Below the pieces are notes generated by a model. It was not told the origin of the DNA, did no database searches, and saw only the letters and a program-made list of their open reading frames with translations. A stretch of 43,911 bases of DNA. It comes from Selenomonadaceae bacterium. GTDB taxonomy: Bacteria > Bacillota > Negativicutes > Selenomonadales > Selenomonadaceae. The stretch spans positions 1 through 43,911 of the forward strand of contig JAFSZS010000118.1 of assembly GCA_017455645.1 (NCBI GenBank), in the 5' to 3' direction. Below, in pieces: positions 9,350-27,552 of the stretch; within the stretch, counting starts at the first letter, position 1; each line of letters begins with the position of its first letter. The position numbers were made by a program, and so were the translations under genes.

Positions 9350-9600
9350 ATGAAAATCGCTACTGATTCCAAATTTAAGGAAAATATTGAAGTTTATTTT
9401 GATATGTTGAAAAAACGGTAAAGAAATTACAGTTACTGATAAAAACGAGAAAAAATTTGGTAAGTTTACGTCGGAAACTGAATCTGCAAAAAAAATTAAA
9501 TAAAGCTGAAGTTGACAGCGTCATAAAATCTTTGACAGGAATTATTAAAAATGACTATAATTTGGACGAAGAAAAAAAACTATTTGAGAGCAAAGTATGA
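9350..9600 (+). pseudogene. Decayed Phd/YefM-type antitoxin gene
   Basis: Starts with ATG behind a good GAGGTGA site, 12 bases after murD, and reads MKIATDSKFKENIEVYFDML before a stop at 9419-9421. Shifting frame at the A-run 9410-9415 restores NGKEITVTDKNEKKFGKF. A second shift at the A-run near 9488-9495 restores NKAEVDSVIKSLTGIIKNDY and a charged tail ending at 9600. The reconstructed order resembles a Phd/YefM antitoxin: a DNA-binding N-terminus, 'GKEITVT', then the 'SLxGIIxxDxxLDE' toxin-binding tail. Both lesions sit in homopolymer runs, so sequencing error is a possible but less likely explanation. No toxin gene follows. Confidence 0.6.
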
Positions 9601-9948: not shown

Positions 9949-11049
9949 ATGAAAATAATTGTTTCAGGCGGCGGCACGGGCGGGCACATTTACCCCGCGC
10001 TGACTTTGATTGACGCCATAAAAAATAAATTGCCGGACGCCGAATTTTTGTACGTTGGAACGAAACAGGGGCTTGAATCTGATATTGTACCGAAGGCGGG
10101 AATTAATTTTACTGCGCTAAGTTTGGAGGGCGGCTTTGAACGTCATTTTACACTGGAAAATTTCAAGCGCGCCGCCGATGCAATTTTGAGCGTCAAACGC
10201 GCAAGAAAAATTGTAAAAGAATTTCAGCCAAATGTTGTAGTTGGTACGGGCGGCTATGTTTGCGGACCGGTTTTACTTGCCGCCGCGCTTATGAAAATTC
10301 CTACGCTGATTCAGGAGCAAAACGCCGTTGCAGGTATTACCAACAAAATTCTTTCAAAATTCGTTGACAAAATCGCCGTCGGCTCCGAACTTGCACTGAA
10401 AAATTTTCCCGCCGATAAAACCATTTACACCGGTAATCCCATTCGCTCCGAAGTTTTAACCGCCTTTCGTGAGGACGGCTTGAAAGAATTTAATTTTACT
10501 GAAGATAAGCCGGTAATTTTAATTTCGGGCGGCAGTCGCGGCGCACGCGCAATTAACAACGCAATGATCGACGTACTTTTGAACGCCAAAGACAACGCCC
10601 AATTTTTGCACGTTACCGGCAAGGGCGAATTTGATTCCGTTACTCAAAAGTTGAAAGACGGCGGCTTTAACTTTGACAATCCCAATATAAAAATTGTGCC
10701 GTACCTGTACAATATGCCTCAAGCAATGGCAATGGCTGACCTTGCAATTTTTCGCGCAGGAGCAACCGGCTTGGCGGAACTTACGGCGCGCGGCGTTCCT
10801 GCAATTTTAATTCCGTTTCCATACGCGGCTGAAAATCATCAAGAATTTAACGCACAAGCACTGGTAAAAGTCGGCGCGGCTCGTATGATTCTCAACAAAG
10901 ATTTAAATTCTGAAATTTTGTCAAAAAACTTGAACGAACTTTTGGAAAATCCCGACGAATTAAAAAAAATGGCGGCGGCAAGTTTAAGTTTGGGAAGACC
11001 GCAAGCCGCGGCTGATATTGCAGATTTAATTTTGAGATTGGCAAAGTAG
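9949..11049 (+). CDS. murG: Lipid II synthase (GlcNAc transferase) MurG
   Basis: Transfers GlcNAc from UDP-GlcNAc to lipid I at the inner face of the membrane. The 366-residue GT28 protein begins MKIIVSGGGTGGHIYPAL, the glycine-rich lipid-binding loop with the catalytic His. It has GTGGYVCGPVLLAA and IQEQNAVAG, and the C-terminal UDP-binding region with ISGGSRGARAIN and FRAGATGLAELTARG followed by ENHQEFNA. It follows the efflux gene by zero bases and the start ATG is unambiguous. The downstream partner expected in mur clusters (murC/murB) is missing, replaced by a restriction-like cassette. Confidence 0.97.
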   Translation: MKIIVSGGGTGGHIYPALTLIDAIKNKLPDAEFLYVGTKQGLESDIVPKAGINFTALSLEGGFERHFTLENFKRAADAILSVKRARKIVKEFQPNVVVGTGGYVCGPVLLAAALMKIPTLIQEQNAVAGITNKILSKFVDKIAVGSELALKNFPADKTIYTGNPIRSEVLTAFREDGLKEFNFTEDKPVILISGGSRGARAINNAMIDVLLNAKDNAQFLHVTGKGEFDSVTQKLKDGGFNFDNPNIKIVPYLYNMPQAMAMADLAIFRAGATGLAELTARGVPAILIPFPYAAENHQEFNAQALVKVGAARMILNKDLNSEILSKNLNELLENPDELKKMAAASLSLGRPQAAADIADLILRLAK

Positions 11050-11061
11050 GAGGTGTTGCCT

Positions 11062-13221
11062 TTGATTTATGAAAAAGATTTGTGTACTTACGAAGAATTT
11101 AAAAATATGTCAATTAGAGAACGCCGATATTATCTCAATAAAGTATACGGTGATTCCTTAAGTCATAGGGTAATTGCTGTAATTAAAGAATTTTCATCAA
11201 ATAAAATAGAATTTGAGATAAAATATTTCATCCTGCAGAATAATCTTCTTCAAGAATTTTACTTGTTTAAAGATAAATCTTTCTCAAGCTTTACTTCAAA
11301 CAGTAATATTCTTATAGCTTCTTGCATTAAAAAAAATTTTTCTGTTGGTGATTCACTTGTTTGTGAAATTTATGCGGGTGATGTACATCCCGTGTCTTTT
11401 TTCGTATGCTCCAAAAAGCAAGCTAAAAGCATACTTGAAACTTACGAAAAAATTGGTATTTCATATAATCCCGATGAAATTTCCAAAGAAAATAATAAAA
11501 ATTTCAATGATGATTCGACACTCGCTAACATTGATGTACAACTTCAAAAGAATATAGAGGAAAAAAATTCTGAAATTGAACTTTTAGAAAAACGCCTAAA
11601 CGAATTAAAAAAACTTCAAGAAGACGCCGAAAATCAATATAAGGACAAGGTTCAAATTCAGGAACAAAAATTAACTGAAGAGTACAATCAAAAAAAATCT
11701 GAACTTCAAAATCTTATTTCCGGAATGGAAAATGAACGCAATGAATTAAAAGAAGATATTGAAGACTTAAACAGCAATATTGAAGATTTGAATAAGAAAA
11801 TTCAACGTTTGAATAATGAACTTGAAGAAAAATCAAATGAACGTTACGAATTAGAAGAGTACATTGAAAATTTGAATCGTCAAAAAGATTCTTTGGAAGA
11901 AAAATTAAATATTTTGCGTGCGTACGGGATTAATTTTTTTGATAAAGAGCCTGCAGAAGAAATTGTAATTGAAGAAGAAACCGCTGATTTTGACGGCGTT
12001 ATAGATTTTCTTTTTAATGGCGATTCTGCAAAAAAAATTTCTACTCAAAAAAAATCTGTCAAGCTTAGAAATTTTAACGACTTCGACGAAATGGCGGATT
12101 ATTGGCAAAGTCATTTGAACACGGCGAAATATAATTTTTTGAAGTACGACAAAAGAATTTTGGAAAGTTTATATTTCGGCTTGCAAACAGATCAATTAAT
12201 TTTGCTTATGGGAAATCCCGGCACAGGCAAAACAAGTTTGGTTAAAGCCTTTGCAAAGTCTTTCAATTTCGCCGACGCAAAAATTATTCCCGTTCAATCC
12301 AACTGGACTGATAAAAGCGATTTGCTCGGCTATTACAACCCGCTTGAAAAAAATTACGTTGCAACACCGTTTCTTGACGCGCTCATAAATTTTTCCCGGC
12401 AAGCTGAAAAAAATCCCGACAAGCTTTTTATAATTTGCCTTGACGAAATGAATTTGGCACACGTGGAATATTATTTTGCCGAATTTTTAAGTATTTTGCA
12501 AGATAACGATAACGCCGAAATTACTTTGTACAGTGAACAACTTCAACAAAATATTTTGTACGAATTGGAAAACGTCGGCTTTAAAATTGACGGCGATAAA
12601 ATTTTCTATGAAGGTACGCCGCTTGAAAGGTTACGTTTGTTGGAGCGCAAATATTATTTTGAACTTCGACGCCTCGCGCAGATGCTGATAAATTATCCCG
12701 CAAAATTTAAAATTCCCAAAAATGTAAAGTTTTTCGGCACGCTGAATCAAGACGAAACAACTTTAGATATTAGCCCAAAAGTTTTGGATCGTTCGTACGT
12801 GATTAGGGTTGAAAAATTTTCTGACGCCGAAAAAATTCCTGTAGGTGACGAAACGCCATTGCAGTACAAGCCGCTTGAAGAATATACGTATCAATATGAA
12901 CCACAAGAATTTGATGATATGAAAAAATATTTGATAAATTTAATGGAAGATTTAAAATTCGTTCATATTAGTTGTCGTGTAACTGATAAAATCCTTTGCA
13001 ATGAACAAGTCTCAAATTGTACAAGAATTTTAGGTTCTTTGAGGATTCAAGATTTTATTATCGTGTCGTGCATTTTGCCTAAAGTTCGACTTGACGAAGA
13101 AAAATATGAAATTGACGCCGCGGCTGTCCAAAGTTTATTATTTTGGGGAAGTTGGGGCTGGGAAATTTGGCAAAGTATCAATTCGCCGGAAGAAAAAATT
13201 GCAGATTTTTGGAGGCGGTAA
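11062..13221 (+). CDS. McrB-like AAA+ protein with N-terminal coiled coil
   Basis: Probably the motor subunit of a type IV restriction (McrBC-like) system. Of 719 residues, about 1-150 form an unrecognised beta-rich domain. Residues about 153-290 form a long Glu/Lys/Asn-rich coiled coil (ENERNELKEDIEDLNSNI is typical). The AAA+ domain has Walker A GNPGTGKTS (near 384), Walker B LFIICLDEMNLAHVEYYF (near 455) and FFGTLNQDETT (near 556, sensor region) before a candidate Arg finger in LDRSYVIRVEK. TTG at 11062 is chosen because AGGAGGT (11049-11054) sits 7 bases upstream; a GTG at 11053 lies inside that site. It is followed after 3 bases by the nuclease gene. The first 900 bases look more AT-rich than the neighbours. 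The target nucleic acid is unknown. Confidence 0.85.
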   Translation: MIYEKDLCTYEEFKNMSIRERRYYLNKVYGDSLSHRVIAVIKEFSSNKIEFEIKYFILQNNLLQEFYLFKDKSFSSFTSNSNILIASCIKKNFSVGDSLVCEIYAGDVHPVSFFVCSKKQAKSILETYEKIGISYNPDEISKENNKNFNDDSTLANIDVQLQKNIEEKNSEIELLEKRLNELKKLQEDAENQYKDKVQIQEQKLTEEYNQKKSELQNLISGMENERNELKEDIEDLNSNIEDLNKKIQRLNNELEEKSNERYELEEYIENLNRQKDSLEEKLNILRAYGINFFDKEPAEEIVIEEETADFDGVIDFLFNGDSAKKISTQKKSVKLRNFNDFDEMADYWQSHLNTAKYNFLKYDKRILESLYFGLQTDQLILLMGNPGTGKTSLVKAFAKSFNFADAKIIPVQSNWTDKSDLLGYYNPLEKNYVATPFLDALINFSRQAEKNPDKLFIICLDEMNLAHVEYYFAEFLSILQDNDNAEITLYSEQLQQNILYELENVGFKIDGDKIFYEGTPLERLRLLERKYYFELRRLAQMLINYPAKFKIPKNVKFFGTLNQDETTLDISPKVLDRSYVIRVEKFSDAEKIPVGDETPLQYKPLEEYTYQYEPQEFDDMKKYLINLMEDLKFVHISCRVTDKILCNEQVSNCTRILGSLRIQDFIIVSCILPKVRLDEEKYEIDAAAVQSLLFWGSWGWEIWQSINSPEEKIADFWRR

Positions 13222-13224
13222 TTT

Positions 13225-15207
13225 TTGGAACTTTTGATGACACTGATTAACGCCCAAGATTTTACGCCGCTTGCCGACAATGAATACACTGAAAATATTT
13301 TTCGTACAGATGAGCGCGGCTACTTTCAAACGCACATTTACTTTGGCAATTATATTCCGGCGTTCAGCTTTGAGGGCGCGGCAGAAAATTATTCATTGGA
13401 ATTTGGCGCAGATAAGGATGGCAACCGCCAAAAATTTCAGCGTCATTTTAATTTCTATTACGATAAAAATTTGGGCTGGAATGTTGCCGGCTGGACTTAC
13501 ATTTTTGTTTTGAAAGACGGCGCAATTATCGAAACGCACAAACTTTTGACTTTGCCGGATATAAAAGAATGTGAGGCAATGATTAGGGAATTGCTTTCTA
13601 TTCGGCGGGAACTTTTTCAGAAAAGCAACGAAAATAAATCCAGTTTGGCTGAAAATCTGCGCGAAAAAAATTGGGCGGAAATTTTACAAGCTTTGAATGA
13701 GCAGGCAGAGGAAATATTTCAGCTTATGAAAAATGTTAATGCTCGGCGGCGTTTTGGCTTGCAGAAATTTCAAACGCAAGTTACCGCGTCAAAGATTCAC
13801 CGTTTCGATGAAAAAATTATTCGACAGTACGCCATTGCTCCAAACAGAAAAAAATATTTCGTGTCTGCCGAAAAAATTTCAATGAATATCTTTGAAAATC
13901 GCTTGTTGAAAAATAAAATCTTGCGGCTGAAAAATTTTGTCGAGCGTCAAAGTCAACAACAAAAAATTAACGCCGAAGCTTTACAACAAGATATTGTCGC
14001 GCAGATTAAGCACGTTGAAAATTTGAAGCCCCAAAATGACGACAATAAATCTTTGGCTGAAAATGCTTTAAAAAGTTTAAATTCGCAACTTCAAGCTAAC
14101 AAAAAAAATCTTGCAGTTTCGCCGGATAAGATTTTGGAAATGCTGAATAAGTGCCTCGCCTTGCCGGTTTTTAACGGCGTCGAAAACAAAAATGAAAAAT
14201 GGCGAATGACGCAAATTTTTACCAATGACGCCAATTATCGCAGGGCTTACCTCAAGCTGAAAGAGTTGGACGAAATTTTTGACTTTTCATTTGACGCCGA
14301 CGAAAAATCTTTTCCCGCCGAAAAAATGTATCAAATTTACGAATGGTGGGTACTTGCAAAAATTATTGAATTTCTTGTTGTCAAGTTGCAATTCAAAATT
14401 GAAAATACTTCAGATAATCCCGCTGAAATTTTGCGCAAACTTTTTGGCAACCTTGAAAATATTCAAAAGGCAACAATCAGCTTGACGCACGAAAATTCTA
14501 AAATGGAAATGCAAATTTTTTATAACACCGAAATAAAAGATTCTCTGAAAAGCGGCAACTGTATTTTGCGCCCGGATTATCTTTTTAAAGTTAAATCTGA
14601 AGACACAGAAAAAATTTTTATTCTTGACGCCAAATATCGCAACTACAAGCTACAGGGGAATTTTTTTTGGCAAGAAAAAGATTTGCGCGGCGTTTGCTTT
14701 GAAAAATATATTCAAACAATTAAAAAGTACACCGGCAAAGAAATTTCAATGTCTTTTATTGTCCATTCCGACGGCACGCACAAAGATAAATTTTGGGGTA
14801 AGTACGTGGTCTACAATGGCGCGGAATTTTTAAAAAATTTTGCCGAAATTGACGGCGCACGTCAACAAATAGGCTCCTTTTATCTTTTGCCGCAAATTGA
14901 CAACGAGTCTAATCAATCTGAAATAAATTTGTCATTGTTTTTCAAGATTATGTTTGAATATTTTATGGAAAAGTGGCAAATTTGCTGGGAATGCGGCTCA
15001 AACAAAGTTGACTGTACAGAAATTCCTTTGAATAAATTTTCAAAATTTCACATTCGCTGCCAAAATTGCGGGGCGTTTTGGGTCAACAATTACTGTAGTG
15101 AGTGCGCCAAAAAAAATTCCCGTATCGCTTTAATAAAGCACGCCGTCAATTATCACAACGAAAAAGCCGGTACTTGGTATGTTCGCTGTCCAAAGTGCGG
15201 GGAGTAA
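13225..15207 (+). CDS. McrC-like PD-(D/E)XK nuclease with DUF2357-type N-terminus and zinc ribbons
   Basis: Likely the nuclease partner of the preceding AAA+ protein. The 660-residue protein has an N-terminal beta-rich region resembling DUF2357-type proteins, a helical middle with coiled-coil character (about 150-310), and a nuclease core. In the core, RPDYLFKV (near 450) and ILDAKYRNYK (near 466) supply the PD...DxK catalytic residues. The last 75 residues are cysteine rich: CWECGSNKVDC, CQNCGAFWVNNYCSECAKK and CPKCGE, enough for two zinc ribbons, an uncommon addition for McrC. The start is TTG at 13225, with GGAGG about 9 bases upstream. It ends 5 bases before dprA. The family call rests on motifs and gene pairing. 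Confidence 0.8.
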   Translation: MELLMTLINAQDFTPLADNEYTENIFRTDERGYFQTHIYFGNYIPAFSFEGAAENYSLEFGADKDGNRQKFQRHFNFYYDKNLGWNVAGWTYIFVLKDGAIIETHKLLTLPDIKECEAMIRELLSIRRELFQKSNENKSSLAENLREKNWAEILQALNEQAEEIFQLMKNVNARRRFGLQKFQTQVTASKIHRFDEKIIRQYAIAPNRKKYFVSAEKISMNIFENRLLKNKILRLKNFVERQSQQQKINAEALQQDIVAQIKHVENLKPQNDDNKSLAENALKSLNSQLQANKKNLAVSPDKILEMLNKCLALPVFNGVENKNEKWRMTQIFTNDANYRRAYLKLKELDEIFDFSFDADEKSFPAEKMYQIYEWWVLAKIIEFLVVKLQFKIENTSDNPAEILRKLFGNLENIQKATISLTHENSKMEMQIFYNTEIKDSLKSGNCILRPDYLFKVKSEDTEKIFILDAKYRNYKLQGNFFWQEKDLRGVCFEKYIQTIKKYTGKEISMSFIVHSDGTHKDKFWGKYVVYNGAEFLKNFAEIDGARQQIGSFYLLPQIDNESNQSEINLSLFFKIMFEYFMEKWQICWECGSNKVDCTEIPLNKFSKFHIRCQNCGAFWVNNYCSECAKKNSRIALIKHAVNYHNEKAGTWYVRCPKCGE

Positions 15208-15212
15208 TTTTA

Positions 15213-16319
15213 ATGGAAAGGTACTATTTGGCAACTCTGAACGCCGTTAATTTAATTGGCAGTAAAACTTTGCAAAAGTTGGTTGAAAAATTCGGCAGTG
15301 CAGAAAATATTTGGCGGGCGGAAATTTCAAAACTTGCAGAGGCGGGATTTAATCAAAAAATTATCGACAATCTTACGGAATTTCGCAGTAAACACCCGGA
15401 CGCCGTAGAAAAACTTGTTGAATTTTGTTATAAAAAAAATGTAAAAATCTGCACAACTTCAGACGAAAATTACCCGCCAATTTTAAAGCAAACTTCAGCC
15501 GAGCCGATAATTTTTTACTACCGCGGCGAAATAATTCCCAACGCCGAAAGAATAGCGATAGTCGGCACTCGTGAGGCTACACCTTACGGCGAACAAGTTA
15601 CCAAAATTCTTGGCGCGGAATTGGCGGCGGCAGGTTTAACCATTGTTAGCGGCGCGGCTAAAGGGATTGATACTTTCGCACATGAAGCGGCTTTGAAAAA
15701 CGGGCGAACGGTTGCAGTTTTGGGCTACGGAATAAATAAAATTCCCTCTGAAAAGCGAAAATTTTTTGAAGAAATAGTTGCAAAAGGCGGCGTCATTATG
15801 ACAGAATTTCCGCCGAATTTTGACGGCAACACCGGAACTTTTCCTGCGCGAAACAGAATCATTGCCGGACTTTCGCGCGGCGTTATTGTGGTTGAGGCGG
15901 GCGAAAAGTCGGGTGCGTTAATTACTGCCGGGCGTGCGGCTGATTTTTCGCGTGATGTTTTTGTTGTACCGCACAGTATTTTTTCTCCAAAAAGCGCGGG
16001 CTGTCATAATTTAATACGTGACGGAGCAATTTTGATTAAGGGCGCGGAAGATGTTTTGGAAGAGTACAATTTTGAAAATAAAAAAATCGCCCCCAAAATT
16101 GAGAGCGAAGAAAAAATTGTACCTGCGCCAAAAATTGAACTTGCGGGCAATGAAAAAATTGTTTATGACGCAATACCGCAGGAAGATTTTATAACTTTGG
16201 ACGAAATTTTAAATAATGTGGAGGAAGTTTCGCCGGCTGAAATTTCTGAAATAATTGTGCAGTTGGAATTGAAAAATCTAATTTTTGAAGATGACGGCAG
16301 GTACTCAAAAAAATTTTAA
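15213..16319 (+). CDS. dprA: DNA processing protein DprA
   Basis: Binds incoming single-stranded DNA during transformation and loads RecA. The 368-residue protein has an N-terminal SAM/HhH-like region (LNAVNLIGSKTLQKLVEKFG), the Rossmann-like DprA core with AIVGTREATPYGEQV, IVSGAAKGIDTFAHEAAL, GRTVAVLGYGI, FPARNRIIAGLSRGVIVVEA and GALITAGRAADFSRDVFVVP, and a C-terminal winged helix (about 300-368). The ATG at 15213 lies 5 bases after the nuclease gene, behind GGGGAG; a frame open to 15102 overlaps that gene and is not used. The 3' end overlaps convergent thyX by 4 bases. With the minor pilins at 20 kb it hints at natural competence. Confidence 0.96.
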   Translation: MERYYLATLNAVNLIGSKTLQKLVEKFGSAENIWRAEISKLAEAGFNQKIIDNLTEFRSKHPDAVEKLVEFCYKKNVKICTTSDENYPPILKQTSAEPIIFYYRGEIIPNAERIAIVGTREATPYGEQVTKILGAELAAAGLTIVSGAAKGIDTFAHEAALKNGRTVAVLGYGINKIPSEKRKFFEEIVAKGGVIMTEFPPNFDGNTGTFPARNRIIAGLSRGVIVVEAGEKSGALITAGRAADFSRDVFVVPHSIFSPKSAGCHNLIRDGAILIKGAEDVLEEYNFENKKIAPKIESEEKIVPAPKIELAGNEKIVYDAIPQEDFITLDEILNNVEEVSPAEISEIIVQLELKNLIFEDDGRYSKKF

Positions 16320-16951: not shown

Positions 16952-18295
16952 TCACTTTTTGTAAACTTGATTATCTTTGATAGTAAAACCGTTGGCGGTT
17001 AAAACTTTTTGCGAAGAAGTACTTTTGCCGAAAATTTTTAGTTCCCGCAACATATTTACAAAAGTTGAAAGCGGTATCCCCTCGACGAACGGCACTTTGT
17101 GAACGGCGTTATTATGGGCGATTGACACGAATTTTAATTTATCTTCGTGCTTGCGAATATATTCAAGGGCGGGCGGCGGGATTTTTTTTAAGTAATTTTC
17201 AATTTCGCCAACAATTTTTTCTTCGCTGTGAAAGTAAATTTTATCTTCGCGCAGGTCCAAAAAACTGTCGGCGATAATTTTTTTTACTTCATCGGCGTTA
17301 TCCGAAATTGCGTAACCTTTCAAAAGTCTTGAAAACATTTTTAGCGAAATACCGTTGACGAAGGGAATTTCTTGCAAATTGCCGTTGCACTTTATGAAAA
17401 TATTTTTAGTTTCGGCGGCGTGCGCAGTAAAATAATTGATAACATCGTTGAAAGGATTTTTGGGCGGCGCAGGCGGCTTTATTTCGGCTTGTACGGGCTT
17501 TTCGGCGGGCTTTGCAGGTTTTATATCATTGTCAAGGAAAACCGCGTTATTTTCGATTTTAAGCGGGCTCTCGTCGATAATTTGAGTAAGTGCCTTGCCG
17601 TTCGGAATAATTTTCAGCTGCATTAAAATATTTGTAAGCGTCGAAAAATTTACACCTTCGATAAAAGGAATTTCAAGCGATTTCCCGCAATACCAAACTG
17701 AAATAAATTGAATATCCGCCTCATTTTTTGTCAGAAAATCTTGCACGAATTGCGGCAGATTTTTTTTGCGCAGTTCCTTAACTTTGTTTACATTTGGATT
17801 TGGTGAAACAATTTCCACGGGCTCGGCAACACCTTTCTTTTTTTCGGCGTCAGGAATTTCAACTGCCAAATTTTTAAAATCGACAAGCTCAATAAAATCC
17901 GGGTTAATTCGTAAATCGTACAGCAGGGCTTTTAAATTTTTGTGCCCGCTGCCGTCTGAAACCAAAATAACTTTTCGCTGCTTGTCTGTAACAAGTTTAA
18001 TTGCGGCCAAAAAATCCCTGTCGCTTGAAACTATAATTATCACGTCAACCGCGGGCTTTTCAAAGATAGTTTTTGCAATTTCGGTACAAAGCCACGTATC
18101 GGCGGAATTTTTGCCGTAGAAACAATTTTTAATGTGGTAACGGTTGCCGGATTCAAGATATTTGTTTGAAATGTTGGTTTCGTTGCCAATTATTTCAACC
18201 TGTTCAACAAAATATTCAAAGCTGAATTTTTCAATCGCCTTAAATCCAATTTCCGGCTTGACGTTTTCGGCGTCAATAAAAATATGTGCGCTCAA
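16952..18295 (-). CDS. NYN-domain (PIN-like) protein with three C-terminal repeats
   Basis: A putative ribonuclease or RNA-binding protein. Residues 1-150 form an NYN (LabA/DUF88-like) domain with the acidic residues expected for a metal site: HIFIDAEN (Asp8), NSADTWL (Asp66) and SSDRDFLAAI (Asp92, Asp94). After a Pro/Lys-rich linker there are three related segments at about 183-254, 284-355 and 378-447. Each has an 'IPFxxGxxxxxFxxxLxxLKI' core and ends in a short 'IxDNxVY' strand; they may be small winged-helix or LOTUS-like modules, but the family is not recognised. The start is TTG at 18295, behind GAGGA, downstream of a strong promoter. The ATG at 18334 would overlap the promoter's -10. 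Confidence 0.78.
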   Translation of the reverse strand: MSAHIFIDAENVKPEIGFKAIEKFSFEYFVEQVEIIGNETNISNKYLESGNRYHIKNCFYGKNSADTWLCTEIAKTIFEKPAVDVIIIVSSDRDFLAAIKLVTDKQRKVILVSDGSGHKNLKALLYDLRINPDFIELVDFKNLAVEIPDAEKKKGVAEPVEIVSPNPNVNKVKELRKKNLPQFVQDFLTKNEADIQFISVWYCGKSLEIPFIEGVNFSTLTNILMQLKIIPNGKALTQIIDESPLKIENNAVFLDNDIKPAKPAEKPVQAEIKPPAPPKNPFNDVINYFTAHAAETKNIFIKCNGNLQEIPFVNGISLKMFSRLLKGYAISDNADEVKKIIADSFLDLREDKIYFHSEEKIVGEIENYLKKIPPPALEYIRKHEDKLKFVSIAHNNAVHKVPFVEGIPLSTFVNMLRELKIFGKSTSSQKVLTANGFTIKDNQVYKK

Positions 18296-18322
18296 TGAAT
18301 TTTCCTCAATGTTTTTATTTTG

Positions 18323-18350
18323 ATTGTACCACATTACTTAAAATATTCAA
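18323..18350 (-). promoter_or_regulatory. Promoter for the NYN-domain gene and thyX
   Basis: On the minus strand TTGAAT (18350-18345), a 16-base spacer and TACAAT (18328-18323) with an extended TGG. It is about 27 bases upstream of the chosen TTG start. The -35 lies in the last codons of the UPF0756 gene, so this gives the downstream pair its own transcription. The -10 covers the first in-frame ATG, arguing against that start. Confidence 0.65.
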
Positions 18351-22618: not shown

Positions 22619-24253
22619 ATGAGTACTTACGGAATAGACCTTGGAACAACATATTCTTGCATAGCGCGCCTCGATTCAAACGGCAACCCCGAAGTTATCC
22701 GCAATAACGAAGATGATTCAAATATGGTTGCCTCGGTAGTTTTTTTTGAAAATGAAAATAACGTTGTAGTTGGACAAGCCGCCAAAGAAAATATCGAAAC
22801 TGACGGCGACCGCGTTGTACAATTCGTCAAGCGTGAAATTGGCAAACGTGATACCCGCACTTACGAATTTGACGGCAAAACTTATACACCGGTTGAAATC
22901 AGCGCGTTAATTTTGACACGCTTAAAAAATCTTGTCGAGGCGCAAGGCAACACCATTGAAGACGTTGTTATAACTGTTCCCGCGTATTTCGGACTGGAGG
23001 AACGCTCCGCCACAAAACAAGCCGGCGAACTTGCAGGCTTGCACGTTTTAAGCTTGATTAATGAACCTACCGCGGCGGCTTTAAGTTATTGCGCCCGCCA
23101 ATTTCAAGAAGACCGTACAATTTTAGTTTATGATTTGGGCGGCGGCACTTTCGACGTTACACTTGTTAAAATGTCAATGACGCGCAATGAAGCCGGTAAA
23201 GACGTGCAAAAAATTAACGTGCTTGCAACCGGCGGCGATGATAAATTGGGCGGTAAAGATTGGGACGATAAACTTTTTGAATATATTCTTAATGCTTGCT
23301 GCGAAGAAAACGGCTTGACGCCACGAGAAATTGAAGCTGAAACCCGCCAAGATATCCGCAGTAAAGTTGAAGAGGCTAAACGCAAACTTAGTAAAAAACA
23401 ATCCGCCAAAGTTCGTATCGACGTAAACGGCTCCCGCACTGAAATTACAATCAAGCGTTCAGATTTTGAAAGTATGACTGCTGATAAAGTCGCGCAGACT
23501 ATGAATTTTGTTGAATCAACTTTACAAAAAGTTCCGGGCGTCGAAGTCGATACAGTTTTACTTGTCGGCGGCTCCACTTATATGCCTATGATTAAAAACG
23601 CAGTTGAAGAAAAATTTCCCGGTAAAGTTCAACAACACGACCCCGATCAAGCCGTTGCAAAAGGCGCGGCAATTTATGCAAGTATGCTTGTTGTTGAGGA
23701 AGGCACAATTTCAACTGGCGAAACTTCAGAAAATAATTCTTCAGAAAAAAATCCGCACGCCGAACAACTTACCGCCAAATTTGCCGTTGAAGATCAAACG
23801 CCCCGCTCTTTCGGTCCCGGCGTTATGGATACCAAAGGCAGTAAACATAAATACGTTTTGGAAAATTTTATTAAAATTGGCGAAAAAATGCCCGCGGTTT
23901 TCAGCAAAACTTATTACCCGCTTGAAGATAATCAAGAACGCGTAAGACTGCGCGCCTTTGAAAATATGTCAACTGAAGATACTTTAATTCCCTGCGTCGA
24001 TGAAGACGGCAACCCGCAAGCTACAGATCCCGCCAACAATGTAAAACTTTTGGGCGAATTGGTTGTAAATTTGCCGCCGGAAACTGCGCGAAATACTCCT
24101 ATCAAAGTTACTTTCAAAGTTGACGCAAGCGGCGTACACGTCGAGGCAGTCAACACCAAAACTAATGAAATTTTTGAAACTTTCCTGCGCACTGAATCAG
24201 ATATTGACGTTGACAACAGCGCAGTACATCAACTTAGAATTTCCGCAGATTAA
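22619..24253 (+). CDS. Hsp70 (DnaK-like) chaperone lacking the lid
   Basis: A 544-residue Hsp70. The nucleotide-binding domain (1-370) has phosphate loop 1 GIDLGTTYSC, INEPTAAALSY, phosphate loop 2 VYDLGGGTFDVTL, the connect segment and LLVGGSTYMPMI. After a low-complexity stretch (about 375-390) a beta substrate-binding domain is visible: DQTPRSFGPGVMD, KTYYPLEDNQERVRLRAFE and KLLGELVVNLPPETARNTP. It ends at residue 544, right after the beta domain, so the alpha-helical lid of DnaK (about 100 residues) is absent, as is the EEVD-like tail. ATG is preceded by GGAGGAG. It ends at a strong terminator. It is probably a client-specific Hsp70 paired with the adjacent GrpE-like and J-like genes. Confidence 0.92.
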   Translation: MSTYGIDLGTTYSCIARLDSNGNPEVIRNNEDDSNMVASVVFFENENNVVVGQAAKENIETDGDRVVQFVKREIGKRDTRTYEFDGKTYTPVEISALILTRLKNLVEAQGNTIEDVVITVPAYFGLEERSATKQAGELAGLHVLSLINEPTAAALSYCARQFQEDRTILVYDLGGGTFDVTLVKMSMTRNEAGKDVQKINVLATGGDDKLGGKDWDDKLFEYILNACCEENGLTPREIEAETRQDIRSKVEEAKRKLSKKQSAKVRIDVNGSRTEITIKRSDFESMTADKVAQTMNFVESTLQKVPGVEVDTVLLVGGSTYMPMIKNAVEEKFPGKVQQHDPDQAVAKGAAIYASMLVVEEGTISTGETSENNSSEKNPHAEQLTAKFAVEDQTPRSFGPGVMDTKGSKHKYVLENFIKIGEKMPAVFSKTYYPLEDNQERVRLRAFENMSTEDTLIPCVDEDGNPQATDPANNVKLLGELVVNLPPETARNTPIKVTFKVDASGVHVEAVNTKTNEIFETFLRTESDIDVDNSAVHQLRISAD

Positions 24254-24366: not shown

Positions 24367-27300
24367 TTGGCTAATAAAAATATTTTTGAAATGCTCGGCT
24401 TGGAATTTGACCCGCCGGACAATCTGAAAAAAATTCGTGCGGCTTACGAAAATTGGGAAAAACGCCTGAACGCCGAATTAAATACCACAGTCGACCCCAA
24501 CCGCGCCGAAGAAATTAAAGCTGAATTGGCGATGGACAATTATATTTTGCAGACAATAGAAAATGCGCGGCTGCGTCAACGCGAGGCTGAATCTTTGAAA
24601 CAAAAACGCGTTGAAGAGTTGCGCCTTTATATTGACATTCAGCGCGGCGATATTTCCGGCACTTTGCAAGTCAACACTTCCCAAATTAAACAGATTAAAG
24701 ACAAACTCAAACTTAGCACGGCAACCATCGAGGCAACTTACCGCGAGCAGGGCTTTGAAGTTAAACCTATCAAAACTGAAAAATCTGTCACAACAATTTT
24801 GAACGGCTACTTTATTGCTGATTCTGTTATGGCTGAATTGCGAAAAAATTTTGCCGATTTTCAAACAGTTCCCGACGAAAAAAATTATCCTTGGTCTGCA
24901 AACGTTTCAAATTTTTATGAATTGGCTTACTACCTTGAAAAGCAAATTGAACCTTCGCCGGATTTTTACAAGCGGCGTGATACTGACGAACTGCGCGAAA
25001 TTTTTAAAAACGAAGCAAAAAAAGTTTCCGCGCCTATTCCCGCGTGGCGTTCAATTAAAGCACTCCTAAACCTTGCACAAACTCAAATTTTTAATTCAGA
25101 TGACAACCGCTTTAAGTACGAACATTCTTTGAAAATCGAAGGGCTTTATGATTTTTTCAACAAGTTAAAAGCCGCGCCGGAAATTTTCAAGCGTGATAAA
25201 TTTTTCGCCGATAACTGCATAAATCGAATACGCCGCCAATTTCCAAATTTGCTGAATTACGAACTTAGCGCGGCACTTTACAATAAAGCCGTTGGTTTAA
25301 CCAAAGACCCTTACGAGTCGGTTAATGACGTTTACGAAAATTTTTTCAGTTTGACTTGTACGAATTGCGGCGCGTTTGAAAGTTTTCGTACCCGCGAGGA
25401 AGCCGAGCGTTCAACTTGCCGAGTTTGCGGCGAAAATTTTTATGTTGAGTGTCCAAAGTGCGGCAAGCGTATGCCTTCCTACGCTGACCATTGTACAAAT
25501 TGCGATTTTTCTTTCAGTGAATTGCGCCGTTACGGTTATTACCTTGATCACGCAAACGCAATGCTTGATTTAATTGAGCGCAACGCAAAATCTTTTGAAG
25601 GCAGCAGCGATAAAATTTTGGCGGGCGTTGTTGATAATTTGGCAAAGGCAAAAATAGTTAAGCCGGAATCTCCCGACCTTACAAAAATTGAATGGCGTAT
25701 GAATAAAATTGCAGCCGAATTTAAAAAGCGCGAGCTTGTACGTTGGGCGGAGGCGAAACTTCCTTCACTTAGCACGCACCCCGATACTGCCGTTAGTGAT
25801 TGTATGGAAATTTTGCGCCGTATCAAAGATTATAAACCCGCGCTTGACAGATTAAGATTGATTAAGCCGAAAAAACCTTTAAGCCTTAGCGCGGTTATCC
25901 TTGAAAGTGAATCCAAAAATACTTTGGCGGCAAATTCCATTGTTCAAAAAATTTCTATCAAGTCAAAGTCAACAAGCGTTGCCTCGACAAGTTCAAATTT
26001 AGTTTGTAAATTGCATTGGCAACCCGACAGCGATTTGGGCGTTTTTTATACACTTGTTCGCAAAACTGACGGCATACCGAAAAATTATCACGACGGCGAA
26101 ATTATCGTTGAAAAAACCGAACAGATAGAATTTGAAGACGGCAATATTCACCCCGGCGTTTTGTACGGCTACGCGGTTTTTGCGGCGCGGCTGGGCTCCG
26201 TTTCAGAACCTGCAACTTGCAAAATTGTACATTACAGCGACATTGCCGCCAATAAATTAATCGCCAAAACTGAAGACGGGCATTGTAAATTTATGTGGCA
26301 GTTGCCTTCTGATAATTGCTTGGGCGTGCGAATTTTGCGCGCTGACAGCGAAGGAAATAATGTTATCGTTGCAGATTGTGTTGAATCGCCCTTTGTTGAC
26401 AGGCTTGTAAAAAATCGCAAGCAGTATCAGTATCGTTTGCAGTGCGTTTATTATTCGGCGGAAGATACGGTTACCAACTTGCAACAATTTTTGGCTGAAG
26501 TCAACAAGGAAAATTTTAACAAAGTTTGGAAAACTGAACGCTCTCTGAAGTACAGCGACGGCGTAACGGTAAATTTGTTGCCGGAATTGCCGCCACGCCC
26601 CGTGAAAAATCTGGAGCACAAAGTTTTTGAGGAGCGCGTTAAATTTACTTGGCAGTCAACCGGCGATTTTGAAATTTGGTTTAAAGAAATTGTTGACGAT
26701 AAAAAAATTTCAGTTCCCGCGGGAGAAATTTTTGACTTAAATAAAATTGACGAACTTTTGGGAAACGGCGTTGTAATGAAGCGCGCCGAATGTTCAGATT
26801 TATTTTGTGAATTTGCGTTGACTGCCGATTTAATGAAAATTGCCGTTATCAGTGCAACGCGGGAGTTTGGAGTTGTCGGGGAAATTTTGACTGTAACAAA
26901 CGCCGAGCCCTGCGAAATTGACAAGGATAAAACTCAAATTATTGCCAACGATTTAAAATTAGTTTTGCAAAAGTTGCCGCCAAATGTCTATATGATTCAT
27001 TACAAAGTTAAAACTAATGAAGCTGATGAAGTTTACGCAACGGTTGAGGACGCCAAGACGCGGCAAATGAATAGGATTTACGCCTCAAAATATATGCAAG
27101 ATAATTCGATAACTCAAACGCACTTACCGCACAGGGAATTATTTATTACGGTTATTGCCGAATACAAATTAAAAGGCGGCTCAACGGTTTATTCCGAACC
27201 AAGCACTTTGACTTTGGATAATCGCCCGCGCTCCGAAATTTCTTATTATCTTGAATGGGGAAAAAGTTTTGGGCTTTTCACGACGAAGGCGCAGGCTAAA

Positions 27301-27552
27301 AATTGCAAGCTGATGATTGAAAGTAAAGCCGAATACACGCCGAAATTATATTTGGCTTGCAGGAAAGACGGCTTGACGAATATAAATCTGAAAGATTCTT
27401 TGACGCGGATTTTGGCTGAAGTTCCGGAATATAAAAACGGTTTACCGAACGGACATATTGAAATTTCACTGCCGGACGAAATTTGGGACGAAGTTTTACC
27501 CGGCGCGATTGTAAAATTAATGACTGCGCCCGACGACGAACGCCATTTTTAA
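24367..27552 (+). CDS. Large J-like/zinc-ribbon/beta-repeat protein, probable Hsp70 partner
   Basis: A 1061-residue protein of unrecognised overall family, with no signal peptide. Residues 1-75 resemble a J domain (IFEMLGLEFDPPDNLKKIRA, then a conserved-looking AYENWEKRLN), but FDPPDN stands where HPD would be, so canonical Hsp70 activation is doubtful. Residues 80-325 are helical. A cysteine-rich block at about 330-385 (CTNCG, CRVCG, CPKCGKR, CTNC) makes two zinc ribbons, as in many DnaJ proteins. From about 545 onward there are at least three beta-rich, fibronectin III-like segments (CKLHWQPDSDLGVFYTLVRK; CKFMWQLPSDNCLGVRILRA; VKFTWQSTGDFEIWFKEI). The start is TTG behind AGGAGAGG. Placement after a lidless Hsp70 and GrpE-like gene suggests the third member of a chaperone set. 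Confidence 0.72.
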   Translation: MANKNIFEMLGLEFDPPDNLKKIRAAYENWEKRLNAELNTTVDPNRAEEIKAELAMDNYILQTIENARLRQREAESLKQKRVEELRLYIDIQRGDISGTLQVNTSQIKQIKDKLKLSTATIEATYREQGFEVKPIKTEKSVTTILNGYFIADSVMAELRKNFADFQTVPDEKNYPWSANVSNFYELAYYLEKQIEPSPDFYKRRDTDELREIFKNEAKKVSAPIPAWRSIKALLNLAQTQIFNSDDNRFKYEHSLKIEGLYDFFNKLKAAPEIFKRDKFFADNCINRIRRQFPNLLNYELSAALYNKAVGLTKDPYESVNDVYENFFSLTCTNCGAFESFRTREEAERSTCRVCGENFYVECPKCGKRMPSYADHCTNCDFSFSELRRYGYYLDHANAMLDLIERNAKSFEGSSDKILAGVVDNLAKAKIVKPESPDLTKIEWRMNKIAAEFKKRELVRWAEAKLPSLSTHPDTAVSDCMEILRRIKDYKPALDRLRLIKPKKPLSLSAVILESESKNTLAANSIVQKISIKSKSTSVASTSSNLVCKLHWQPDSDLGVFYTLVRKTDGIPKNYHDGEIIVEKTEQIEFEDGNIHPGVLYGYAVFAARLGSVSEPATCKIVHYSDIAANKLIAKTEDGHCKFMWQLPSDNCLGVRILRADSEGNNVIVADCVESPFVDRLVKNRKQYQYRLQCVYYSAEDTVTNLQQFLAEVNKENFNKVWKTERSLKYSDGVTVNLLPELPPRPVKNLEHKVFEERVKFTWQSTGDFEIWFKEIVDDKKISVPAGEIFDLNKIDELLGNGVVMKRAECSDLFCEFALTADLMKIAVISATREFGVVGEILTVTNAEPCEIDKDKTQIIANDLKLVLQKLPPNVYMIHYKVKTNEADEVYATVEDAKTRQMNRIYASKYMQDNSITQTHLPHRELFITVIAEYKLKGGSTVYSEPSTLTLDNRPRSEISYYLEWGKSFGLFTTKAQAKNCKLMIESKAEYTPKLYLACRKDGLTNINLKDSLTRILAEVPEYKNGLPNGHIEISLPDEIWDEVLPGAIVKLMTAPDDERHF

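What the first reader, a model, noticed from the sequence alone, without database searches (positions are those of the whole stretch)
11053..15207. Coiled-coil McrBC-like cassette between murG and dprA, possibly a CoCoNuT-type system
The McrB-like protein carries a small N-terminal domain and a roughly 135-residue coiled coil before the AAA+ domain. Its partner has a DUF2357-like N-terminus, a PD-(D/E)XK core and C-terminal zinc ribbons. Extended coiled coils plus a McrC-type nuclease are the hallmark of the proposed CoCoNuT branch of type IV restriction, predicted to sense RNA or translation. The zinc ribbons and unknown N-terminal domain could define a new subtype.
Basis: partly seen in the sequence, partly recalled or inferred. 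Interest (0 to 1): 0.68.

Follow-up and report, generated by a model that had tools for sequence, protein, structure and literature searches.

The report
Two-gene coiled-coil GTPase–nuclease (CoCoNuT) cassette
A rumen bacterium carries, wedged between two housekeeping genes, a two-gene machine (a long-armed GTPase motor plus a DNA/RNA-cutting partner) that belongs to an already predicted but untested family of bacterial defence systems, in a form whose sensing end looks exchangeable and whose cutting partner has lost one usual domain.

Summary
11053-13221 encodes an McrB-like AAA+ GTPase and 13225-15207 its McrC-like partner. The GTPase carries the shortened NxD motif (NQD), a 123-residue helix with heptad periodicity, and a helical insert between Walker B and NxD. 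The partner has an Ig-like sandwich, a DUF2357-type helical region, an intact PD-D-x-K nuclease and eight zinc-ligand cysteines. These are the published marks of CoCoNuTs, closest to Type I-A (Bell et al. 2024, PMC11090510), and the pair corresponds to PADLOC's candidate PDC-M26. The claim that zinc ribbons and the N-terminal domain define a new subtype does not, since both are described for Type I-A or Type I. RNA or translation sensing stays untested.

New details: (1) the partner lacks the ~200-residue insertion reported as OB-bearing in Type I-A; it is present in a relative at the same murG-dprA site and absent in 7 of 18 complete partners. (2) That site occurs empty, full, reduced and decayed in related genomes. 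(3) The sensor half of the GTPase gene has foreign codon usage, and one relative carries a repetitive, beta-helix-like sensor on the same engine. Most likely a GTP-driven anti-phage nuclease with an exchangeable sensor; defence is inferred.

The parts
9532..9561 (+). promoter-like site (12 of 12 consensus matches) upstream of the SMR-murG-cnuB-cnuC-dprA gene row
   Evidence: consensus scan; a match only, not evidence of function
9949..11049 (+). murG, housekeeping gene just upstream (12 bases between its stop and the likely cnuB start at 11062)
   Evidence: Pfam; sequence
11053..13221 (+). cnuB: McrB-like NxD GTPase, 722 aa from GTG; likely true start TTG 11062 (AGGAGG at 11050-11055)
   Evidence: AAA_5 4.2e-8; PDC-M26A 2.4e-76
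11089..11451 (+). N-terminal domain (residues 13-133), OB-like strand order in the model
   Evidence: AF2 model; cold-shock identity inconclusive
11554..11922 (+). coiled coil (residues 168-290), one 123-residue helix
   Evidence: AF2 model; heptad periodicity, 0 of 5000 shuffles as high
12067..13152 (+). AAA+ GTPase region (residues 339-700)
   Evidence: structural match to E. coli McrB 6ut6_D, Z 14.5, rmsd 3.2, 183 aligned; best Foldseek hit 6hz4_A
12211..12234 (+). Walker A GNPGTGKT (residues 387-394)
12442..12453 (+). Walker B DEMN (residues 464-467)
12511..12702 (+). helical insert between Walker B and NxD (about residues 487-550), the published Type I-A mark
   Evidence: gap Walker B to N = 101 against 54 in E. 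coli McrB; helices 495-507 and 529-547 in the model
12745..12753 (+). NxD signature N565-Q-D567, followed by E
   Evidence: sequence
13225..15207 (+). cnuC: McrC-like nuclease subunit, 660 aa
13225..13554 (+). Ig/FN3-like beta-sandwich (residues 1-110)
   Evidence: VIA-align Z about 6-7, 73-82 aligned, rmsd about 3-4.2, against FN3/filamin-type domains
13561..14280 (+). DUF2357-like helical region (residues 113-352) with a beta hairpin (178-219) and two long helices (223-266, 272-296); lacks the ~200-residue insertion of close relatives
   Evidence: T. gammatolerans McrC 6ut5_G Z 10.7, rmsd 5.9, 152 aligned; span 106 residues against 273-386 in 11 of 18 complete rows
14320..14958 (+). PD-(D/E)xK nuclease (residues 366-578)
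   Evidence: PDDEXK_7 2e-9; Can2 8q41_B Z 8.1, rmsd 3.8, 139 aligned
14572..14634 (+). catalytic P450-D451 ... D468-A-K470
   Evidence: D-D-K kept in 18 of 18 complete rows of A3
14983..15198 (+). C-terminal zinc-ribbon region: C587, C590, C612, C615, C624, C627, C655, C658
   Evidence: metal binding inferred
15213..16319 (+). dprA, housekeeping gene just downstream (5 bases between the cnuC stop and the dprA start)
   Evidence: Pfam 2e-70; sequence

Best explanation
This is a CoCoNuT of Type I, closest to Type I-A: a two-protein GTP-driven nuclease. Proposed working: CnuB forms a GTPase ring (by homology with McrB). Its N-terminal OB-like domain on a long coiled-coil arm, perhaps with the Ig-like and zinc-ribbon modules of CnuC, recognises an invader-linked nucleic acid or nucleoprotein. 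The DUF2357 region of CnuC enters the ring and stimulates GTP hydrolysis. The PD-(D/E)xK domain of CnuC then cuts nucleic acid. Shown here: gene pair, motifs, insert, catalytic residues, domain order in models, patchy distribution, and an occupied, empty or decayed site between murG and dprA. Inferred: ring formation, GTP use, anti-phage role, ligand. Whether the target is DNA or RNA is open; an intact McrC-type nuclease as the only effector found makes nucleic-acid cleavage by CnuC the likeliest output.
For: NxD in the window and in 80 of 80 fetched relatives, with E. coli McrB and two NxxD relatives (L008 of the genus, L009 of the class) forming the outgroup. Walker B-to-N gap 101, a feature shared with 24 of 80 loci (77-123); the other 56 have 55-70. 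Window and seven Selenomonadaceae or related loci (L030-L036) form one group, SH-aLRT 99 and 100. The DUF2357/nuclease part of CnuC matches the McrC structures 6ut5_G, 6ut7_G, 6ut6_G, 6hz4_M. D-D-K in 18 of 18 complete partners. PDC-M26A/B models recognise the Klebsiella plasmid pair in full (E 0), linking this group to a PADLOC defence candidate. Accessory behaviour: strong relatives in 2 of 36 same-genus genomes; at the murG-dprA site L030 is full length, G004/L032 decayed, G019 empty.
Against: No functional data. CnuC is not recognised by PDC-M26B and lacks the insertion given for Type I-A CnuC. Cold-shock identity of the N-terminal domain was not established. The surroundings are housekeeping genes, not a defence island. 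The GTPase tree does not make all insert-bearing rows one clade, though it does not reject that either (AU p 0.18).
Confidence: 0.8

Rival explanations
1. A modification-dependent DNA restriction enzyme working just like E. coli McrBC, with the OB-like domain replacing the methylcytosine-binding domain and the coiled coil a passive spacer; it has nothing to do with RNA or translation.
For: Two genes only, intact PD-(D/E)xK nuclease, fold match to McrB and McrC; no HEPN or other RNase adjoining the cassette among the genes scanned.
Against: NxD instead of NxxD and the insert set it apart from McrB; the Ig-like module is stated to be absent from E. coli K-12 McrC by Bell et al..
Confidence: 0.35
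2. A host-regulatory or competence-linked system recruited to the murG-dprA operon rather than defence.
For: Seamless placement, 12 and 5 bases from murG and dprA, with no terminator-like site called in either junction.
Against: Relatives sit elsewhere: next to rimI in G011/L033 and before hisZ in L031; the site is empty in G019 and the genes decay in G004, as expected of an accessory gene.
Confidence: 0.1
3. A decaying, no longer functional copy: loss of the CnuC insertion marks the start of degeneration as in G004.
For: The same site holds remnants in G004 and the window CnuC is about 200 residues shorter than that of L030.
Against: Both ORFs are open, all catalytic and zinc residues are kept, and 6 other complete partners also lack the insertion, including four from named Bacillota strains (L039, L045, L047, L049).
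Confidence: 0.1

Closest known systems
Type I-A CoCoNuT (CnuB + CnuC), Bell et al. 2024 eLife, PMC11090510
   Same: Two genes only; NxD motif followed by E; coiled coil; helical insert between Walker B and NxD; no YTH-like domain found; Ig-like sandwich, DUF2357, PD-(D/E)xK and zinc ribbons in CnuC.
   Different: CnuC lacks the ~200-residue insertion in DUF2357 that carries a CSD-like OB in Type I-A; the N-terminal OB fold of CnuB is only suggested here.
PADLOC candidate system PDC-M26 (A+B), e.g. the Klebsiella pneumoniae plasmid pA2359-IMP pair
   Same: CnuB hits PDC-M26A at 2.4e-76; the Klebsiella pair (735 + 858 aa) has the same two-gene order and the insert (gap 123).
   Different: CnuC is too diverged for PDC-M26B (no hit).
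E. coli K-12 McrBC
   Same: GTPase and DUF2357/nuclease folds.
   Different: NxD not NxxD; insert; coiled coil; Ig-like sandwich; zinc ribbons; no DUF3578 match (best 25 of 31 families shown).
Type II CoCoNuT CnuC
   Same: Also said to have lost the CSD insertion (PMC11090510, passage read).
   Different: Type II has an inactivated nuclease and CnuH/CnuE partners; here the nuclease residues are intact and no helicase or HEPN gene lies next door.

Membership tests
CoCoNuT / NxD branch | NxD instead of NxxD in the McrB-like GTPase | tested here: met
   GTLNQDETT, N565-D567; 80 of 80 relatives NxD
[quoted passage not shown]
   helix 168-290; heptad periodicity 0 of 5000 shuffles
CoCoNuT | GTPase phylogeny inside the published CoCoNuT clade | tested here: inconclusive
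   placed among NxD relatives, far from NxxD, but the paper's own reference sequences could not be loaded
CoCoNuT Type I-A | helical insert between Walker B and NxD (stated to distinguish I-A from all others) | tested here: met
   gap 101 against 54 in E. coli McrB and 55-70 in 56 of 80 loci; helices in the model
CoCoNuT Type I-A | only cnuB and cnuC, no CnuA, CnuH, CnuE | tested here: met
   neighbours are murG and dprA; no helicase, HEPN or coiled-coil gene adjacent
CoCoNuT Type I | cold-shock-like OB fold at the CnuB N-terminus (stated as usual, not invariable) | tested here: inconclusive
   strand order fits in the model; no Pfam or PDB-sequence match; profile score 15.4 against CSDs, shuffled maximum 14.2; the fold search did not test this part
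CoCoNuT Type I | Ig-like N-terminal sandwich in CnuC | tested here: met
   residues 1-110 match FN3/Ig-type sandwiches, Z about 6-7
CoCoNuT Type I-A | insertion in CnuC DUF2357 with coiled coil and CSD-like OB (described for I-A; not the feature used to define it) | tested here: not met
   two long helices present, but the E224-Q330 span is 106 residues against 287 in L030; so filed as Type I, closest to I-A, not as a full I-A
CoCoNuT Type I-A | active PD-(D/E)xK and zinc ribbons in CnuC | tested here: met
   D451, D468, K470; eight cysteines; residues only, activity not tested
canonical NxxD McrBC | NxxD motif | tested here: not met
CoCoNuT (function) | RNA or translation-linked target, anti-phage activity | not testable with these tools
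   also only predicted by the paper

The most novel reading that the evidence does not exclude
Type I-A-like CoCoNuTs are an invariant GTPase-nuclease engine with an exchangeable sensor half. The window's sensor half (N-terminal domain plus coil) was swapped in by recombination from an AT-rich donor while engine and nuclease stayed; a sister system carries a repetitive, beta-helix-like sensor instead; and the OB insertion of CnuC, thought typical of the type, is dispensable. The murG-dprA site would then offer a natural set (empty, full, reduced, decayed) for testing which parts are needed.
Probability: 0.4. Interest if true: 0.55.

Novelty: new member of a known kind. Interest (0 to 1): 0.36.

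Why it matters
I found no published test of any CoCoNuT in the papers held, so the claim that they sense RNA or translation is open. This cassette is among the simplest forms: two genes, an active-looking nuclease, no OB insertion. Orthologues at one chromosomal site with and without the insertion give a natural comparison for deciding what CnuC needs and what the CnuB arm recognises.

Tried and rejected
Ordinary McrBC: rejected on the NxD motif and tree.

New subtype on the basis of zinc ribbons or the N-terminal domain: rejected, both are described for Type I-A or Type I in PMC11090510.

Cold-shock identity of the N-terminal domain by sequence: Pfam on nine members and on ten N-terminal or insertion stretches, PDB profile search, profile comparison (one search used a wrong control protein through a faulty pattern; one search is the corrected run: scores 15.4 and 17.5 for two profiles of several rows, 12.7 and 9.9 for two single sequences; 60 column shuffles of one profile and 60 of one single sequence gave at most 14.2; probabilities under 3%). 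Inconclusive.

Sharp single change point of codon usage in cnuB: not supported as one step (220 of 2000 permutations as strong), because the C-terminal 120 codons are AT-rich too.

Inverse relation of coil length and CnuC insertion: considered by eye from window against L030; L034-L036 do not fit, dropped.

CSD genes of the genus and class were fetched as a control; the large ORFs among the hits read as RNase R-like and other proteins (by eye), not CnuB.

Phages: 2 of 50,697 records matched; viral contigs gave 7 loci, not followed up.
Full report
What is there. Two abutting ORFs lie between murG (9949-11049) and dprA (15213-16319): 11053-13221 and 13225-15207. The likelier start of the first is TTG 11062: it aligns with the starts of the relatives in G004 and L030, and AGGAGG lies at 11050-11055. 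No terminator-like site was called in either junction; a 12-of-12 promoter-like site lies at 9532-9561, upstream of the small multidrug resistance gene and murG. Co-transcription is an inference.

CnuB. The GTPase has Walker A at 387-394, Walker B at 464-467 and NQD at 565-567. Foldseek ranks E. coli McrB first (6hz4_A, 5.6e-7); VIA-align gives 6ut6_D Z 14.5, rmsd 3.2, 183 aligned, tied with dynein AAA+ modules, so the fold alone says AAA+, and it is the sequence matches and the operon that say McrB. The model (mean pLDDT 78.5, pTM 0.55) shows one helix at 168-290, an OB-like strand order at 38-120, and two helices (495-507, 529-547) between Walker B and NxD.

CnuC. The model (pLDDT 81.5, pTM 0.81) shows a beta-sandwich (1-110), a DUF2357-like helical region with hairpin and two long helices, the nuclease and a zinc-ribbon tail. 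McrC chains are the first three Foldseek hits and the first four by VIA-align (Z 9.0-10.7); the rmsd of the three longer ones is large (11.6-12.4 over 275-278 residues), which I put down to several domains being spanned. Residues 1-110 match FN3/Ig-type domains at Z about 6-7; the tool warns that Z under 8 may be only a common arrangement. D451, D468 and K470 are kept in 18 of 18 complete rows of alignment A3 (20 rows; L032 and L033 are fragments; of the 24 insert-bearing loci, L040, L043, L046, L048 and L050 were not put in).

Relatives. A scan of the genome collection found 220 relatives among 253 pattern matches; the best 80 were kept. All 80 are NxD; the search patterns were Walker B stretches, not NxD. 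24 of 80 have a Walker B-to-N gap of 77-123, the other 56 of 55-70. The window groups with L030-L036 (seven loci, Selenomonadaceae or relatives by record title; SH-aLRT 99, 100). Insert-bearing rows as one clade are not rejected (p-AU 0.18, 25 rows against 57); seven long-branch or distant rows had been dropped before that test (L004-L007, L064, L074, L103).

Filing. Bell et al. (PMC11090510; [quoted passage not shown] Of the features tested, the window meets all except the last; the CSD-like OB at the CnuB N-terminus stayed inconclusive. So: a Type I CoCoNuT, closest to I-A. PADLOC's PDC-M26 is the same kind of system: its A and B models cover both proteins of the Klebsiella plasmid pair fully (E 0), and that CnuB carries the insert (gap 123). 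No paper in the held library contains 'PDC-M26', and searches for experimental CoCoNuT work returned only the census paper, its preprint, and a few others that mention it, among them a review and a YprA-helicase preprint (all but the census paper seen as listings only).

The site. In L030 (uncultured Selenomonadaceae, red deer) murG, cnuB, cnuC and dprA stand in the same order with an 858-aa CnuC. In G004 (apparently the same contig as L032, by equal length) the site holds remnants: CnuB without its coil, broken after the NxD region, and a 239-aa CnuC without the nuclease core. In G019 murG and dprA matches are 69 bases apart with a terminator-like hairpin between them (folding z -1.9, 8 of 200 shuffles as good). 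Of the 22 same-genus genomes compared, only G004 and G019 have murG and dprA neighbouring; G002 and G006 gave no dprA hit, G001 only a weak fragment, and in the rest the two lie on different contigs. Strong relatives of CnuB occur in 2 of 36 same-genus genomes; these draft genomes are incomplete. In G011 (L033) and L031 the cassette sits elsewhere, beside rimI and before hisZ; these gene names are my reading of the translations.

The CnuC insertion. The span E224-Q330 falls into two classes: 66-108 residues in 7 of 18 complete rows (window, L031, L039, L045, L047, L049, L064) and 273-386 in 11 of 18. The window and L031 are short within a group of otherwise long forms, which points to loss. 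That the insertion is an OB is the paper's statement; I did not test it by structure (Pfam found no OB in that stretch of L030).

Codon usage. Corrected for amino acids against 13 housekeeping genes of the window (5844 codons), third-position GC is low in the N-terminal domain (z -3.6), linker and coil (-3.8) and C-terminus (-3.0) of cnuB, but normal in the GTPase core (-0.1) and cnuC (+1.0); 29 blocks of 200 reference codons range from -1.9 to +1.9. Against its own GTPase part and cnuC, the N-terminal part is lower in 17 of 18 systems, the window most (z -5.2) and L064 the exception (19 given, L037 skipped as too short; the 18 are related, so not independent). L030, the relative at the same site, shows only a slight deficit (z -0.9). 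L031 has instead of OB and coil a roughly 430-residue repetitive N-terminal part on the same engine; 'beta-helix-like' is my reading of the repeats, no tool confirmed it. Together these suggest an exchangeable sensor half; relaxed codon selection in a fast-evolving half is the plain alternative.

Mechanism and verdict. A GTP-driven ring with McrC-type activator-nuclease is the best-supported working; GTP use, ring formation, ligand and defence are inferred from McrBC and genomic behaviour. The finding is a sound, mostly correct reading of a known but untested kind of system.

Noticed in passing
L031:8421-10829: A close relative (reindeer MAG) of the window GTPase whose N-terminal ~430 residues are a repetitive, beta-helix-like stretch in place of OB domain plus coil; its CnuC also lacks the insertion.
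   Followed up: partly
L002 / L032 (G004:C7:17896-22200): Decayed copy at the same murG-dprA site: CnuB without coil and broken, CnuC reduced to its ends.
   Followed up: yes
L004 (G010:C7), L005 (G019:C18), L006 (G034:C17), L007 (G031:C12): Other NxD McrB-like GTPases with coiled-coil-looking N-terminal parts in the same genus, without the insert; L005-L007 share a divergent NND motif and a following gene.
   Followed up: partly
window 24367-27549: A 1061-residue ORF with no Pfam match at 1e-5.
   Followed up: no
window 16952-18334: NYN-domain (PIN-like nuclease) protein with three repeated ~60-80-residue segments by eye, next to thyX.
   Followed up: no
window 22619-24253: An Hsp70-family ORF of 544 residues, about 7 kb from the cassette; no link to it was tested.
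   Followed up: no
L117 5473-10259 (MN423363.1): Full-length PDC-M26-type pair flanked by mobile-element genes on a Klebsiella plasmid; 262 of 72,556 plasmid records hold a CnuB-like match, 161 of them Klebsiella.
   Followed up: partly
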